DNA from: Ectocarpus siliculosus
Taxonomy: Eukaryota; Sar; Phaeophyceae; Ectocarpales; Ectocarpaceae
Direction: 5' to 3'
Assembly: GCA_000310025.1 (NCBI GenBank)
Contig: FN649742.1
Span: 4,774,333-4,802,690 of the forward strand
Length of the DNA stretch: 28,358 nucleotides
Shown: positions 307 through 23,027 of the stretch, piece by piece
Layout: the number at the start of each line of letters is the position of its first letter
Position numbering within the stretch: position 1 is the stretch's first letter
Made by a program: the position numbers and the translations under genes
Notes under the pieces: model-generated
What the model was told of the DNA's origin: nothing
The model's input: the letters and a program-made list of their open reading frames with translations, nothing else
Database searches by the model: none

Positions 307-3300
307 TATTGGCTGGCCGCCGCTGCACCTTGATCCCTGGCGGCGGCGAACGTGTTGAGCTCGTGAGGGCTCTCACCCGACATGACTGTATTCTATCTGT
401 CTTCGTCAGATACATCGTACATGGGCGCTGGGTACTTGATGGGATGTGTCCTGCTTTACCGAAAATTTCACTGTGCTTTGGCGGTCCTTAGCAGCTCTTC
501 TGCTGTTGCCGCTGTTTCTTTTTGAGCTTGTGAGCTTGTGAATGTGTGTGGGGCGGGGGGAGCGGAGGGAGGGGCGGATGGGCGGATGGGAGAAGGGGGA
601 AAAAAAAAGAGAGAAAAAAGAGGAACCGAAAATGCGCTGATCTGATTGGATGGCTGATCGAAATTCCGCCGCCTACTCAACAGAAAATGGAAATTGGCTT
701 TTTCTCGAGAACGCCGATTTGACAGTCCCGCCGACAGCGCACGGTCCAGCGACAGGAGAAACGGACCTCTCTCCGGTTCGCGTTCACAGCTCTCAGCTCA
801 AAGAAGAGCTGGTCAGTTCTGCCCCGGCGGCTTCGCTAGCTTCGAGGCGGCGGCAAGGGTAGAAAGGAGGTGTCAAACGACAGTAGAACCAGTGGAGAGG
901 TTCATGGGGCGACTCCAAGGATGGAACCGGTGAGACATGCAGGGGAGCCAGGAAGAGACGAGTCGTCAGTCGACGGTGTCGCGATTGACGCTGTTACGGC
1001 CGACGGTTGCTGGAGTCTGGATGTATATATATTTCGGGATGAAGAAGGGGGGGGGGGGGGCAATGGGGACGTGGGTTCAATGGGCCGACTTAACTTGTAT
1101 GCTCTCGAGGGGACGTCGGACAAGGCCTTGCCCGGGCGAGCCCCGTCGCATGGCACTGCCGCAACGGCTGCCTCGGGCGTGAGCAGGAGCATATGGGTAC
1201 TGGTGCCCGCGCCACGGCCGTCGTAGTAACGAAAGCAGCGCCAAAGGCCGCATCAAAATCAACACCTAGCCGCGGCAGCTGAAGTCCAAGTAATTCCTCT
1301 CCTTCCAGTCCACGCCCGCCTCTATGCAGCCGGACAAAAAAACAAAGAAGGCAGCCGTGCTTGCTGGAGCGGCTCCCTGCTTGTTTCCCTTTACCCCCCG
1401 CCTTCGTTACCACAGGCGTCGACCTTGGGAAATTTGTCGTAGATCCGAGCCGGGAAGGACGAGGCGAGCCCCTCCCACCCGGGACAGCGTGCCAAAAAGT
1501 GACATTGACGACCGTGCGGCGTTGGTCTTGATTGTCCCCGAAGAGCGGGGGGTGGGGTGGGGGGCTGTTATGCTGCTGGGAGGACTTACTTGCTTGATCA
1601 AGGGCGAGCGAGCAGAGACTAAGACGAGTGGTACTCGCAGCACAACGTATCTATACCCTGACAACGTTCAACAATAGTTTTATGTCAACAACGCTACAGT
1701 ACAGCAGTGGAGGCTGACCAACCAGGACTATCGAGAGGGGCGATTGTCGTCTGGGTGTAGGTTGGTAGGAGTTGCCCGAAAACCATAATAGCATCAGTTT
1801 TTTTACAGTTTCTTCGGAATTATCTTTGTTTGCTTTGGTTGCTGCTCTTATTTGTGCCAGGACGATGGCGACTCGCGGTCCCTCTCTTCCACATACCTTA
1901 CAGTATCTGGTGAAGGCTAGCGTCGTCGGCGCTGGGGCACGAGACTACATGTGGGAGAGCGTGTGAAGCCATATGCCGCGAAGGGCATCACGTATGGAGC
2001 TCTTTCGTGAGGTGCGCGCCTTAGTGGCTGCCCCAAACCGAGTACCTCTTATAGTATCGGCCAGGCGTCTGCCGCTTGTGTTGCCAAGGTCATGTTGTTT
2101 TCTCACCAACAAAATGACTACCCCATGTACGACAACGTTCATAGTGTTTTTTGGGGGGCAAATGAATCCGTTCTTTAGTTTTTGCACCGCAAGCTCACGG
2201 CAGAGTTTCCCCCTATCCTGAGATCTTGGAACACGACAGGACTCTTTGTATCAAAACCAAAGAGCTTCTGCGATCATTCTTTGGTACTAGATAGGGTGGG
2301 GTAGCGACTCAATACCTCCCAGTAGTCTTATCTGCGACGCTGATGGTGCACGAATGATGTTTGTGGTGCAGCTGCGCCGTGCACCAGAGGGACGGGTGCG
2401 ACAGGTGCGACGATGGTTGTATGTGCGGCCCATTCAGAATTTTGCAGAAATTTTGCACTTTTATGTGGTAGTTTCTTTTCCGTTGATGCACATGCATACA
2501 TATGCATACACCCACGAAGAACCAAAATATGAAGTCTTCCCGCCGTGCGGAGGCAAACATGCACATCTGGAAGAGGCATGCATGCGGCATGTACCTGGCG
2601 GCGAGTGTATCACACATCACACCGCCGAGGAGCACGAGCACCAGCAGCGTAGACAGACATGGGATGATGACAGACAGCGTGACAGACAGATGCCCGCCAC
2701 ATTCGTCTCGAGGATCGAGCCTCCGAATCTCCTCAAGTGAAAGCAAGCAGTTGCATTAATCACGGGGTATCACGACAACAAAAACAACACATCCACCAAA
2801 AACAATAAAAAAGTGGATGTCCATGACGTTGATGGGAGAGCCCCAGCAGCAGCAACAGCATCCTGCTTTGTAAAGACAGCCAGTAGCGCGGCGCAAGTAC
2901 GCAGCAACCTGACTGAACTGATCCCGGGTAACCGTCCTGATAGCGCACCGCAGCAGTGGACCATCGCCCCCTCGACGGTTTCTCTCGATGGTAAGTGTGA
3001 TCTGAACTTGGGAAGGTGTGTCACCAACTTTGGCTTGTGATCATCCGTCGGTCCAGTTGATCGGTCTGCTGTTCTATTGGCAGTCGGTTGGACCCACTCA
3101 ACATCAACAAACACCGCGGCTGGGTTACACACTGCACATGACTATCCACGGTGCGCAGGTCGTATAGCCTCGGCCCTTCCTTGTGTTCAAAGCTGGTCTC
3201 GGATGAGCGTCCTACCGGTGATGATGCGTTTTTTGTTCGTGTTGTTGCGTCCCTGTCTCTGTTTCTTCTCCTGTGGTTTCAATTGCGCGCGCGCGCGATC

Positions 3301-18999: not shown

Positions 19000-21900
19000 T
19001 TAGCCGTGGCTAGGTGCGCTCCCTTCGGCGGCATATATCGCCGCCGTTATGTTGCTGAGGGCGTTCTTGCTGGCGCCCTCCCTCCCCGCCCCCTCCTCGC
19101 CGACGGCGGCGATCGCCTTGGTCGAAGGGGTCTCGTCCGCCCCGCCGAGGACGCTGCCATTCCCGACGGTTTCATTCGTGACCGCGCTCGCTGCCGCCGC
19201 CGCCGCTGCCGCCGCCTCCTCGCGCGGCAACAGGACCCAAATCTGAAAGAAGTCGATCGAAAATGACGCGCACAACACGGCCACTCCGACCGCGCACAGC
19301 AAAGGGGAAGAACCCTCCGCCCCGCCCCGCACCCACCAACCCCTCCCTCCGGTTCGCTCAAACACCGCCGTGTCGGCATCCCCGCCACCGCCGCCGTTCC
19401 TTAAGGCGCCGTTTCCGACGGAGGCCGCAAGAGCAGCAACGCTAGCAAGAGCGGCGATTTTGGCGACCCACCGCCCGGCGGGGCCAATGGGCGAGGGCGG
19501 GAGCTCGCGAGCGTCGGTAGCCAACACAAAGAGGTACCGGAGGACGCCTGCGATAAACCCCCCACGCCACGCCTGCACAAGAGGGACGGAGCGGGGGGGG
19601 GGGACACGAAACGGTTCTTAGCTACACGTTTTGTTTTTTGGCACCATGGCGATTAAAAAAAAAAGGGGGTAGATGTCGTGATGAGCGGGTGGGTGGGCGC
19701 GGTGGGGGGTGGTGGCAGGCTTGATTGGTGTTGGGATCATCCCGCTTAGCGACGAAGAGCTTTCCCTTGAAACCGCAAATACGGGTCGGGATGAATCTAC
19801 GAAAGTGCTGCGGTGCGGGAATACTCGACGCCGCCAACCGCAGGGCCGCATATTCATGGACACTGGTGGAAGGAAGCCATTCTCTTGCCCACCAACAAGA
19901 CTTACACATACCGGCTGTGGGTTTCGACTGCTGAAAGATCATGATGCTGTTCGAATGATGACATTCTCCTTCGAAAATAGCCAATGAGAACACTCCAACC
20001 AACCTTCTGGCTAGCCGCAAGGCTCAGGAACAGCACGGCGATGGAATCGCTCTCGACATCAAGAGCCGCTCCGACGCGCGTGGGCCCAGACTTCGATCGC
20101 CGCGCCAGGATACCGTCCGCCACGTCGAGCAGCACGAAAAGCACTCCGAAGACAGTCACGTCAGCCATCGACACCTGCTCCACAGCAGCAGGCAAGCGCG
20201 CGTTGGGAACGAAACGCAGCGGGGTTTCATGCACATTTGGTCGCCATGTCCACGAAAAATATGGAGGTGAGCGGGGGGCGTTTCTAGTGGCGCACGCTGT
20301 TCCGATCAACACCGACGACACGCTGTGCATACTGGTGCCTGCATGAAGAACGGTGATGCTTGGGGTCACATGCGAGGGTAGGCGAATGAATCAGTATGCA
20401 AGGGTGTGAGGGTGGTAAAACCACGTTGATGCCATGTACGGGGGCTGGGTCATCTAGCCACCATTTTGATTGTTTACAACATCGTGGTCCCCTCTCTCTG
20501 CGGGATAAAAAAACAAAAACAACGCTGCAGGAGCCTCACTCACATCCGGTCCTGATACAAAAGCAAGAGTGAAAGGAGAGATCCCTCCAGGAGAGAAAAG
20601 GAAAAGCACGATGAAAAAGTGCCATTTTCAAAGTCCGCTAGTACCGTTGATAGCTCACAGCACGCCCTGTAGGCTTCACGCCTCGAACGTGCACACGCGG
20701 AGCTACTCTGGTGTTTTCTCTCCTTCGCCCTCTCTCTCTCTCTGTCTGTCTCTCTCCCGCGTCTCTCGTTCTCTCACCTGGCCGAAATCCGACCCAGCCA
20801 TGAACCACACCACCGCCGGCGGAATGAAGCTCCGAAAAACGGTGACGAGGTTTGCCGGCGAGCAAGGCGGGGCCAGCCCGACAAGCAGTAGGCACTGCGC
20901 AGCGACCAGGGCCGCGAGGCCTACCGCCGCGCCGCCGGCGCCGCTGATCGAGACGCAGGTCGCGCACACGCAAGCGAGCGCGTTGTTCACTGTGGCCCTT
21001 CTCACCCGCTCTTGATCTGTGACGGCTGGAATGGTGGTGGTCGAAGGATCAGTAGGTCCGTTCGACAGCTCAAATCCCCCTAGGAGATTAGAACGGCCGC
21101 AAGAAGCACGGGTGCATCTTGTCCCCGTCGTTGTTTCCATGAGAGTCCGGACGGCTTGGCCTCGCGTGTCCGCCGCCACCGCTCGGCAGAACCGCTCAGC
21201 GAGGCCCGGCACCGCACGCTCCGCCTCGATTCTCAACCGCTGCCGGGCGTGCGCAAACCGGAGAAGCGCTTGTCCCCACTCGGTCGCCGACGCAAGCCCG
21301 ACCCCGTCGCCACCGGCGACGATACCCCCGCCGCCGTCGGAATCAGGTCCTCGCCCCTCCCGGCCCGAACCAACCCATATAGTCGACTCGGCGGGTAAAG
21401 ACTGAGCCAACCAACCGACCCGCGTGGAGAGCACCGGCACCCCGCGCAGGGCCGCTTCTACCGGGGCCACGGCCCAGCTCTCGGAACAGGAGTTCAACAA
21501 GAAGGCGTCGCTCGCGCCCACGTGCTCGAGGGTCTCCTCCCGCGGCAAGGGCCCTAGCAGCCGCACCTCCAACCGTCCCGGTCCTTCTACTTTGGCGCCT
21601 CCTCTACTCTCATCGCCGGCCCCGGCGGTTGCCGCCGCCGCCCTGACGGCCTCGGCGTAGGAGGGATCGGCCCCCTCGCCGCCGATGAGCGTGAGCACGG
21701 AGCCGCCTAGTTTTATCGGCTGTGAGGCGCAGGCGGCCCTGAGGGCGGCGATAAGACCGAGCTGGCCCTTCCGAGGGCACAGGGTGCCGACTGACACGAA
21801 CCTTGGAGGACGCTCGTTCGAGACGTCAACCGAAGCGGCTGGAGGCACGACACCCGCTTCGATGGCAGCAGCGGCGGCGGCTGCGGCGGGAGCAGAAGCG

Positions 21901-23027
21901 GCCACAGCGACGTTCGGTGCCACAGCGGTAAACGTGGGCTCGACGACGACGATAGCTTCTTCCCGCACGCCGTAGTCGGCCGTCAAGAGGGTGCGGCAGG
22001 GCGCTCCTACGGCGATGACCTTGTCCAACAGGCCGAAGAGTCGACGCTCCTCCGCGCGGATACCCGCGCCGCTCTCGTCCTGGAGCATGCGCTCGGGAAG
22101 CGCGACTCTAAGCCAAGGTTCCTCGCGGTAGAAAGGCTCGCTACCGGCACGTCATGATAGCAACAATCCGGCATCGCAACGAGGGGGGGTCGGAGGCAAG
22201 CGTCCATTTGCCACAAACCATGAGCATTTCCGTGTTTTTGATTGAAAAGTAACAAGGGAAGATATTATTGGGGGTCGCCGACAACAACAGAACAAACGGT
22301 CGAGAAAAAGACATCGCAACGAGAGCGTATTTTCCCACATTGCGACAGCTACCGGAACGCGCGTCCGCGGCACGTATTGCGCGGATTGCTTGTGCTGTAA
22401 AGAGAAGGAGTATGAAATCCGTTCCATTTGGCTCGTGAGAAAACCCGGCCTGACACGGACATGCCATCATCTCGAGAAACAAAATGAAAATCCATTCGTA
22501 TAACTTCCAACCTCCACCCCCCTTGCCTCCCCCCTTGTTCTGCTTCACTGCTAGCTGAAGCATCGTGAGCGGAAAAAACTGCTGACAGCAACTTATTGCG
22601 GCCCCGCTACGGCGAAATGACGGCGAAAAAAAAATGTAAATCACCTGAAAGGGCAGTGGATAAACCCGGCCACAATATTCCACGGCCCCCCACGCCCCCC
22701 CACCAGCTCGTGCAGCCGATCCCGCAAGAAGAGGAGAGCAATGCCGTCGATGATAAGGACTCGCGAGGGCGACCCGACACCCCTCTCCTCCAGTTCTCCT
22801 TGCCGCCTTAGCAGCTCGAATACGCGTTTCGCGGACGCCGGGTCCGAGGCAACGTGCACGTTTACCGAAGCGACGCCGGGACCAGCGCGGAGATCGTCCT
22901 CGAACGACCTCTGGACAACACAGCCGCCGGTCGCGCTACCGGGAGGGAGGCCGTAGACGAAGTCGACCTCATTCGCTGCTTCCGGCGAGCACGTGGTGGT
23001 CGCTCCGAGGAAGGAATTCCCCGTAGC
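19000..23027 (-). CDS. GT4-type glycosyltransferase fused to CDP-alcohol phosphatidyltransferase (5' incomplete)
   Basis: Four exons join cleanly: 23027-22645, 22140-20778, 20174-20004 and 19572-19000, giving 829 residues without the first exon. The first junction is phase 2 and recreates HCPFSEPFYREEPWL; the others are phase 0. Donors are GTGATT, GTGAGA and GTTGGT. Residues about 30-440 look like a GT4/GT-B glycosyltransferase: a degenerate TGG loop in the N-terminal half, an IIDGIALLFL strand, GTLCPRKGQ, NSCSESWAV, and an E-x7-E pair (E348, E356) typical of donor-sugar binding. After a hydrophobic helix, NLVTVFR (from 558) opens a CDP-alcohol phosphatidyltransferase domain. Its metal-binding motif is at 599-625 (DVADGILAR, then G-x3-D-x3-D), with later membrane helices in the last exon. 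The spacing between AR and G is nine residues, not the usual eight. The expected activity is head-group transfer from a CDP-lipid plus glycosylation in a membrane; substrates are unknown. A bacterial origin is possible but not shown. Confidence 0.8.
20726..20777 (-). repeat. CT/GA microsatellite abutting a splice donor
   Basis: On the plus strand this is a CT/GTCT-rich run. On the gene strand it is a purine run (GA/GACA repeats) beginning directly at the donor GTGAGAG of the large glycosyltransferase exon. It is intronic, and it keeps the reading frame open for about 25 extra codons rich in Arg and Glu, which could mislead gene prediction. Confidence 0.75.

What the first reader, a model, noticed from the sequence alone, without database searches (positions are those of the whole stretch)
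19000..23027. Glycosyltransferase and CDP-alcohol phosphatidyltransferase in one polypeptide
Splice phases and sequence continuity link a GT4-type catalytic half (with E-x7-E) to a full CDP-alcohol phosphatidyltransferase motif and later membrane helices. The junction lies inside one continuous open exon (the 22140-20778 exon holds both the GT4 domain and the NLVTVFR start of the second domain), so the fusion does not depend on an intron call. In actinobacteria, a phosphatidylinositol phosphate synthase gene and a GT4 mannosyltransferase gene (PimA) are neighbours, which offers an analogy for a combined lipid-glycosylation enzyme. I do not recall this fusion being described in algae. Substrates are unknown.
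Basis: partly seen in the sequence, partly recalled or inferred. Interest (0 to 1): 0.78.

Follow-up and report, generated by a model that had tools for sequence, protein, structure and literature searches.

The report
Fused sugar- and lipid-transfer enzyme gene
A large intron-bearing genome carries one gene that joins a sugar-transferring enzyme to a membrane enzyme that attaches lipid groups, and the nearest microbial relatives of both halves lie together in an apparently unstudied gene cluster, which ties the joined enzyme to a pathway still to be worked out.

Summary
On the minus strand, four GT-AG exons (23027-22645, 22140-20778, 20174-20004, 19572-19000) join in frame into 829 residues with no stop. 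Pfam finds a GT4 and a CDP-alcohol phosphatidyltransferase (CDP-OH) domain, each above its curated cut-off. The junction lies inside one open exon. No start codon was found.

The PimA/PIP-synthase analogy is not the nearest relation. Separate plasmid searches gave 2 hits for the GT4 half and 3 for the CDP-OH half, all weak (E 9e-4 to 8e-3). All five lie in one kind of cluster, with a 6-carboxytetrahydropterin-synthase-like gene (PTPS), a zinc-type dehydrogenase (ADH) and a methyltransferase. Trees place each half with the cluster family, on long branches. The same genome has a PTPS of the cluster's type and an ADH nearest haloarchaeal ones, as separate genes. None of the prokaryotic cluster-type CDP-OH genes checked (50, 5 and 8 in three surveys) is fused.

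Best reading: a bifunctional membrane enzyme of this uncharacterised pathway, one domain attaching the lipid, the other the sugar, of a phospho-glycolipid whose head group probably starts from GTP. The chemistry is inferred. There is no transcript proof, and no other eukaryote could be searched.

The parts
22645..23027 (-). exon A: GT4 N-terminal half (SATGG at residue 31, IDGIA, IHCPF at 123); acceptor ACCAG before 23027; upstream start exon not found
   Evidence: alignment with cluster GT4s
22141..22644 (-). intron 1 (GT-AG, 504 bases)
20778..22140 (-). exon B (residues 128-582): GT4 C-terminal half, linker and start of the CDP-OH domain in one open frame
   Evidence: 482-residue open frame 20703-22151
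21456..21482 (-). E-x7-E motif ESWAVAPVE (residues 348-356)
21003..21193 (-). linker between the domains (about residues 445-507, bounds my reading); lower GC3 and an in-frame ATG at 21140
20175..20777 (-). intron 2 (GT-AG, 603 bases)
20004..20174 (-). exon C (residues 583-639) with the CDP-alcohol phosphatidyltransferase motif
20046..20126 (-). motif DVADGILARRSKSGPTRVGAALDVESD (residues 599-625)
   Evidence: alignment with cluster CDP-OH proteins
19573..20003 (-). intron 3 (GT-AG, 431 bases)
19000..19572 (-). exon D (residues 640-829, stop): remaining CDP-OH helices (GVLRYLFV at 648; ASFSID at 741) and an alanine-rich tail

Best explanation
The gene encodes one bifunctional, membrane-anchored enzyme. 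The C-terminal CDP-OH domain moves a phosphatidyl group from a CDP-lipid to an alcohol. The N-terminal GT4 domain (GT-B fold, cytosolic face) moves a sugar from a nucleotide-sugar to the same small molecule or to the new lipid. Both halves descend from two genes that neighbour each other in one prokaryotic cluster (ADH, PTPS-like, GT4, methyltransferase, CDP-OH, often RibD and RibA, or GTP cyclohydrolase IIa in some haloarchaea) and act in the same pathway here. That pathway most likely makes a glycosylated phospholipid whose head group starts from GTP. Shown: the fused reading frame, the motifs, kinship of each half to the cluster family on trees, and a PTPS of the cluster's type plus a related ADH in the same genome. 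Inferred: translation as one chain, the order of the two transfers, the substrates, and the GTP origin.
For: Domains above cut-off; motifs present. Plasmid searches: GT4 half 2 records, CDP-OH half 3 records, all 5 in the cluster (L004 by HMM). Of 85 PTPS-anchored loci: ADH 84, methyltransferase 81, GT4 70, RibD 61, CDP-OH 50, RibA 37; GT4 and CDP-OH together 48. Trees: CDP-OH with the cluster 96/97, with the bacterial cluster rows 97/94 in a wider set; GT4 97/97 (bootstrap not settled), 100/99 in a wider set, beside actinobacterial cluster GT4s at 93/94. Same genome: its one PTPS match is of the cluster's type (123 bits against 39 for the QueD model), and a spliced ADH scores 206 bits against 53 for BchC. 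Three of the five haloarchaeal loci looked at carry GTP cyclohydrolase IIa.
Against: No transcript; no start codon. Linker with atypical GC3 and an in-frame ATG. The five plasmid hits are weak (E 9e-4 to 8e-3), and three come from related Rhizobiaceae. The window-protein rows are long branches (2.6-3.6); the branch dividing the cluster family plus this protein from other CDP-OH enzymes is only 80/61. Raw HMM scores do not separate the cluster families from generic relatives. In 37 chosen genomes the cluster GT4 was the best single-sequence match in 16 of the 31 with any match. PTPS of this type also stands outside the cluster: two Streptomyces loci without ADH, GT4 or CDP-OH score 178-186 bits, above this genome's 123. 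The ADH model also gives 149 bits to a Nonomuraea ADH with no cluster neighbours within 7 kb, and that row falls in the same clade as this genome's ADH. In two haloarchaeal clusters (L158, L169) the GT4 is not of the cluster family (32-33 bits). No convincing methyltransferase or PF03706 flippase was found in the genome. Fusion, PTPS and ADH lie on three contigs, and the PTPS starts with a signal-peptide-like stretch.
Confidence: 0.58

Rival explanations
1. Two genes that share an exon: a GT4 transcript and a CDP-OH transcript starting at the in-frame ATG at 21140, so that the domains work as separate proteins.
For: In-frame ATG in the linker; lower GC3 in residues 451-500. In the prokaryotes examined the two genes are separate.
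Against: No stop or frame change between the domains across a 482-residue frame, so the GT4 half has no in-frame stop before the CDP-OH domain.
Confidence: 0.17
2. A true fusion, but of unrelated GT4 and CDP-OH genes in a eukaryotic lipid-glycosylation enzyme (PI-mannoside or GPI-like); the cluster link is long-branch chance.
For: Long branches; identity only 26-36% to the plasmid hits, with weak E-values; PTPS of the cluster's type and ADHs of this kind also occur outside the cluster.
Against: Five of five hits in one cluster type (three of them from related Rhizobiaceae), starred tree support for both halves, and a PTPS and an ADH of the cluster's kinds in the same genome; PIP-synthase model 18 bits against a cut-off of 170.
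Confidence: 0.15
3. The fusion descends from the cluster, but one domain is catalytically lost and serves only as a membrane anchor or scaffold.
For: The GT4 half carries low-complexity insertions; the CDP-OH motif has one extra residue (AR-x9-G) relative to the cluster alignment.
Against: E-x7-E, PRKG, the loop His and the Asp, Gly and Arg of the CDP-OH motif are present.
Confidence: 0.1

Closest known systems
GT4 and CDP-alcohol phosphatidyltransferase genes of the PTPS/ADH/methyltransferase cluster (e.g. Agrobacterium pAt L003, Thiodictyon L005, Streptomyces L007)
   Same: Same two families; trees group each half with them; a PTPS and an ADH of related kinds also lie in the genome
   Different: Separate genes in the prokaryotes checked, one spliced gene here; I found no described product for the cluster
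PimA with phosphatidylinositol phosphate synthase (actinobacteria; recalled)
   Same: A GT4 and a CDP-OH enzyme working on one lipid pathway
   Different: PIP-synthase model 18 bits, cut-off 170; neither was in the trees
Other CDP-OH enzymes of the same bacterial genomes (PF01066 matches; PgsA- and PssA-like by recall, not annotated here)
   Same: Same superfamily and motif
   Different: Outside the clade of cluster family plus window protein (the dividing branch is only 80/61); TIGR00560 pgsA 14.9 bits against a cut-off of 109
Huimycin cluster of Kutzneria (PMC7439116; passages seen)
   Same: A GTP-derived molecule built with a 6-carboxytetrahydropterin synthase, a methyltransferase and a glycosyltransferase
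   Different: Starts with GTP cyclohydrolase I and makes a soluble nucleoside-like antibiotic; the cluster genes named in the passages include no CDP-OH enzyme

Membership tests
GT4 (PF00534/PF13692) | Pfam match above gathering score | tested here: met
   34.8 bits (26.4) and 27.1 bits (27)
GT4 (PF00534/PF13692) | N-terminal GT-B domain PF13439 above cut-off | tested here: not met
   13.7 bits against 28.5; the aligned motifs TGG, IDGIA and IHCPF are present
GT4 (PF00534/PF13692) | E-x7-E motif | tested here: met
   residues 348-356
CDP-alcohol phosphatidyltransferase (PF01066) | Pfam match above gathering score | tested here: met
   37.1 bits (22)
CDP-alcohol phosphatidyltransferase (PF01066) | D-x2-DG-x2-AR-x8/9-G-x3-D-x3-D (spacing recalled) | tested here: met
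   residues 599-625, spacing x9
CDP-alcohol phosphatidyltransferase (PF01066) | six transmembrane helices | tested here: inconclusive
   a simple hydropathy scan finds five hydrophobic stretches, two of them overlapping, between residues 523 and 748
CDP-OH family of the PTPS cluster | groups with the family to the exclusion of other CDP-OH enzymes | tested here: met
   96/97; 97/94 with the bacterial cluster rows, where the branch that also takes in haloarchaeal rows is only 80/61
CDP-OH family of the PTPS cluster | D-[MV]-E-x-D, RY-x-[FY] and C-terminal SF-x2-D signature | tested here: met
   alignment A2, 14 rows; the E is A in the two haloarchaeal rows printed
GT4 family of the PTPS cluster | groups with the family to the exclusion of other GT4s | tested here: met
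   97/97 (bootstrap not settled), 100/99; long branch
PTPS cluster | genes physically linked | tested here: not met
   fusion on contig C17, PTPS on C4, ADH on C2; no HMM of another cluster gene matched the window at E<=0.05
Phosphatidylinositol phosphate synthase (NF045883) | equivalog score at or above 170 bits | tested here: not met
   18 bits
enzyme activity of either domain | glycosyl and phosphatidyl transfer | not testable with these tools
   needs expression and assay

The most novel reading that the evidence does not exclude
Proteobacteria, actinobacteria, haloarchaea and at least one eukaryote share an undescribed pathway that turns GTP into a glycosylated, lipid-anchored pterin- or flavin-like molecule, perhaps a membrane redox or light-absorbing cofactor (a cytochrome b and a flippase-like gene lie in about half of the loci counted: 42 and 39 of 85). 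In the eukaryote the two steps that add the sugar and the lipid are fused into one polypeptide.
Probability: 0.24. Interest if true: 0.88.

Novelty: new variant of a known kind. Interest (0 to 1): 0.66.

Why it matters
A domain fusion is strong evidence that two enzymes act on one molecule. Here it links a glycosyltransferase and a phosphatidyltransferase whose relatives sit in a widespread microbial cluster. Of its ten Agrobacterium proteins only RibA passes an NCBIfam equivalog cut-off, and the papers listed in nine searches do not describe it. The fusion says that the product is a phospho-glycolipid, which makes the pathway testable by lipidomics, and it moves at least part of the pathway into a eukaryote.

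Tried and rejected
PimA/PIP-synthase analogy: rejected as the nearest relation. Raw cluster-HMM scores as proof of kinship: rejected, because generic GT4s score 36-125 bits and generic CDP-OH enzymes 19-44 bits with the same models, against 58 and 43.5 for the window protein. Single-sequence best hits: 16 of 31 genomes only; one more, in G002, is a cluster-type GT4 by HMM and tree. A methyltransferase-ADH fusion in the C2 gene: suggested by eye, not supported by profile; the lowest shuffle result is 1 of 300 for one of the 15 methyltransferases, and 11 of 1000 for one of three; not claimed; the sequence above it reads N. Viral origin: four viral scans gave one ADH relative only. The first GT4 count (76 loci) was cut to 70 at a 200-bit threshold, because six loci score 77-138 bits; L064's looks like a glycogen synthase. 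The 4q9n hit (residues 666-774) was set aside as a low-complexity match. The 3D tools were not used: they take proteins read letter for letter from the DNA, and this one is spliced.

Rows given to trees: CDP-OH, 17 of the 50 loci plus L152 or plus L161, L164 and three haloarchaeal rows; GT4, 24 of 70 plus L117, or 20 plus L117 and six further rows. Left out: six duplicates of cluster rows; four duplicates and five outgroup frames over 520 residues; L142 and all rows over 200 bits among the outgroup loci; L113, L115, frames over 520 residues, rows over 300 bits except L117, and the GT4s of L158 and L169, which are not of the cluster family. The ADH tree keeps one poor row, L084 (32% filled).

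Full report
WHAT WAS CHECKED. The window (28,358 bases) is G000:C17:4774333-4802690 of a 189-Mb, 492-contig genome. The minus strand holds four exons (23027-22645, 22140-20778, 20174-20004, 19572-19000) that join in frame to 829 residues and a stop. The three introns are GT-AG, of 504, 603 and 431 bases, with GC 0.50-0.54. No start codon was found: the frame above 23027 meets a TGA at 23069-23067, and the possible upstream exons listed are many and unsupported. A search of G000 with the protein, 8 candidates scored, matches only this locus, exon by exon.

DOMAINS. Pfam gives CDP-OH_P_transf at residues 557-684 (37.1 bits, cut-off 22) and two GT4 C-terminal models (34.8 bits, cut-off 26.4; 27.1 bits, cut-off 27). 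The GT4 N-terminal model is below its cut-off, but exon A aligns with prokaryotic GT4s at TGG, IDG-[LI]-A and the H-x-P loop. E-x7-E is at 348-356 and the CDP-OH motif at 599-625 with spacing x9. Exon B, in one 482-residue open frame, holds residues 128-582, so the GT4 half and the start of the CDP-OH domain (ANLVTVFR, 557) share an exon. Weak points are the linker's GC3 (0.54 for residues 451-500, against 0.62-0.88 in the other blocks) and an in-frame ATG at 21140. There is no transcript evidence.

WHERE THE HALVES COME FROM. I searched each half alone by tblastn against 72,556 plasmids at E<=0.01. The GT4 half matched 2 records (Thiodictyon E 9e-4, Streptomyces 2e-3). The CDP-OH half matched 3 (Agrobacterium 2e-3, Allorhizobium 5e-3, Peteryoungia 8e-3). 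Each match is weak, but all five lie in one kind of gene cluster. GT4, CDP-OH, a 6-carboxytetrahydropterin-synthase-like gene (PTPS), a zinc-binding alcohol dehydrogenase (ADH) and a SAM methyltransferase are in all five; RibD, cytochrome b and GTP cyclohydrolase II (RibA) are each in four (L004 is unannotated and was read by HMM).

HOW COMMON THE CLUSTER IS. With the five plasmid loci that makes 85. Score-filtered counts: PTPS 85, ADH 84, methyltransferase 81, GT4 70, RibD 61, CDP-OH 50, a gene annotated sulfatase in L003 45, cytochrome b 42, flippase-like 39, RibA 37. GT4 and CDP-OH occur together in 48 of 85. No frame matched both models. Among the 64 of the 80 scan loci at least 19 kb long, GT4 is in 54 and CDP-OH in 39. 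In 200 Pseudomonadota genomes the CDP-OH profile matched 13 at E<=1e-12: eight score above 180 bits, in frames of 240-279 residues; the other five score 51-56 bits in frames of 202-239. Of ten further plasmid loci (actinobacteria, haloarchaea, Methylosinus), five have a CDP-OH match and none a fused frame. The three surveys may share genes. I saw no prokaryotic fusion.

TREES. HMM scores could not settle kinship: generic GT4s score 36-125 bits and generic CDP-OH enzymes 19-44 bits with the cluster models, against 58 and 43.5 for this protein. I therefore built trees with outgroups from bacterial genomes that carry the cluster. CDP-OH: this protein joins 18 cluster rows with 96/97 support against 23 others. 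With actinobacterial and haloarchaeal rows it joins the bacterial cluster rows with 97/94, while the branch dividing the cluster family plus this protein from other CDP-OH enzymes is only 80/61, and the program warns of long branches meeting. GT4: 97/97 with 25 cluster rows against 20 others, the bootstrap not settled; 100/99 in the wider set, beside the actinobacterial cluster GT4s at 93/94. Its end branches are long (2.6-3.6). Against: in 37 chosen genomes, the single-sequence GT4 search had its best match in the cluster GT4 in 16 of the 31 genomes with any match.

PARTNERS IN THE SAME GENOME. Pfam PTPS matches G000 once (C4, 2 candidates scored). Its exons carry RDxIMIAHS, FGPAQ and HGAT, with 50% identity to the Agrobacterium protein over the part aligned. 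The spliced protein scores 123 bits with the cluster PTPS model and 39 bits with QueD (cut-off 89). From recalled PTPS chemistry, the second zinc His of HGH and the catalytic Cys are replaced in this group, so canonical activity is doubtful. It begins with a signal-peptide-like stretch. Its plasmid search matched 24 records; 9 of the 11 that I looked at have the cluster or part of it, but L162 and L165 have the PTPS (178 and 186 bits) without ADH, GT4 or CDP-OH, so this PTPS type alone does not prove the pathway.

A consensus cluster ADH found collinear exons on C2 (E-values 2.6e-4 to 1.1). My splice of them scores 206 bits with the cluster ADH model, against 53 for BchC. Its plasmid search matched 139 records, 55 of them Enterobacter; the best 12 are haloarchaeal, at 36-43% identity. 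The ADH tree joins it with five haloarchaeal rows and one long-branched Nonomuraea row (L166) at 100/100; that row has no cluster neighbours within 7 kb and scores 149 bits, so the ADH is probable, not certain, as a pathway partner. The methyltransferase and a PF03706 flippase were not found convincingly, but stretches of G000 read N, including all 9.7 kb above the ADH, so absence is not shown.

CHEMISTRY, INFERRED. Bacterial clusters often carry RibA (37 of 85). Of five haloarchaeal loci looked at, L158, L160 and L169 carry GTP cyclohydrolase IIa, a different enzyme that also opens GTP, and L159, like Streptomyces L007, a creatininase-family gene; L168 shows neither. The haloarchaeal sets are looser relatives: their PTPS scores are 29-36 bits, and the GT4s of L158 and L169 are not of the cluster family. 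From recalled riboflavin and F420 chemistry this suggests a GTP-derived pyrimidine or pterin. The huimycin cluster (PMC7439116, passages) shows that GTP, a 6-carboxytetrahydropterin synthase, a methyltransferase and a glycosyltransferase can together make a glycosylated GTP-derived molecule. A CDP-OH enzyme adds a phosphatidyl or similar lipid group. The fusion says that both transfers act on one molecule. The order of steps and the exact product are unknown.

LITERATURE. Nine searches of the held open-access library listed no paper that by title and abstract start describes the fusion or the cluster; one search showed 20 of 64 papers and 12 of 13. I saw passages of PMC13118837, PMC12419801 and PMC7439116, which do not describe it. 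Most subscription papers are not in that library. In NCBIfam, of the ten Agrobacterium cluster proteins only RibA passes an equivalog cut-off, and the flippase-like protein passes a general subfamily-domain model.

VERDICT. The fusion is real at the sequence level, and its meaning is better explained by a shared cluster pathway than by the PimA analogy. It awaits a transcript and a product.

Noticed in passing
L008 / L096 (G000 contig C4): The one PTPS match of the genome is of the cluster's type, with HGAT in place of HGH and a signal-peptide-like N-terminus.
   Followed up: yes
L094 (G000 contig C2): A spliced ADH gene nearest to haloarchaeal cluster proteins; its first exon also codes an upstream stretch faintly like the C-terminus of the cluster methyltransferase.
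   Followed up: partly
L158, L160, L169 (haloarchaeal plasmids): Related gene sets occur in haloarchaea with GTP cyclohydrolase IIa where many bacteria have RibA.
   Followed up: partly
L162, L165 (Streptomyces plasmids): A PTPS of the cluster's type stands without ADH, GT4 or CDP-OH, near MEKHLA-domain and cupin genes.
   Followed up: partly
window 21003-21193: Linker coding region with low third-codon GC and an in-frame ATG at 21140.
   Followed up: partly
L008 about 2130-3130: Repeated blocks similar to TTAAACAGGGACC near the PTPS gene, by eye a dispersed repeat.
   Followed up: no
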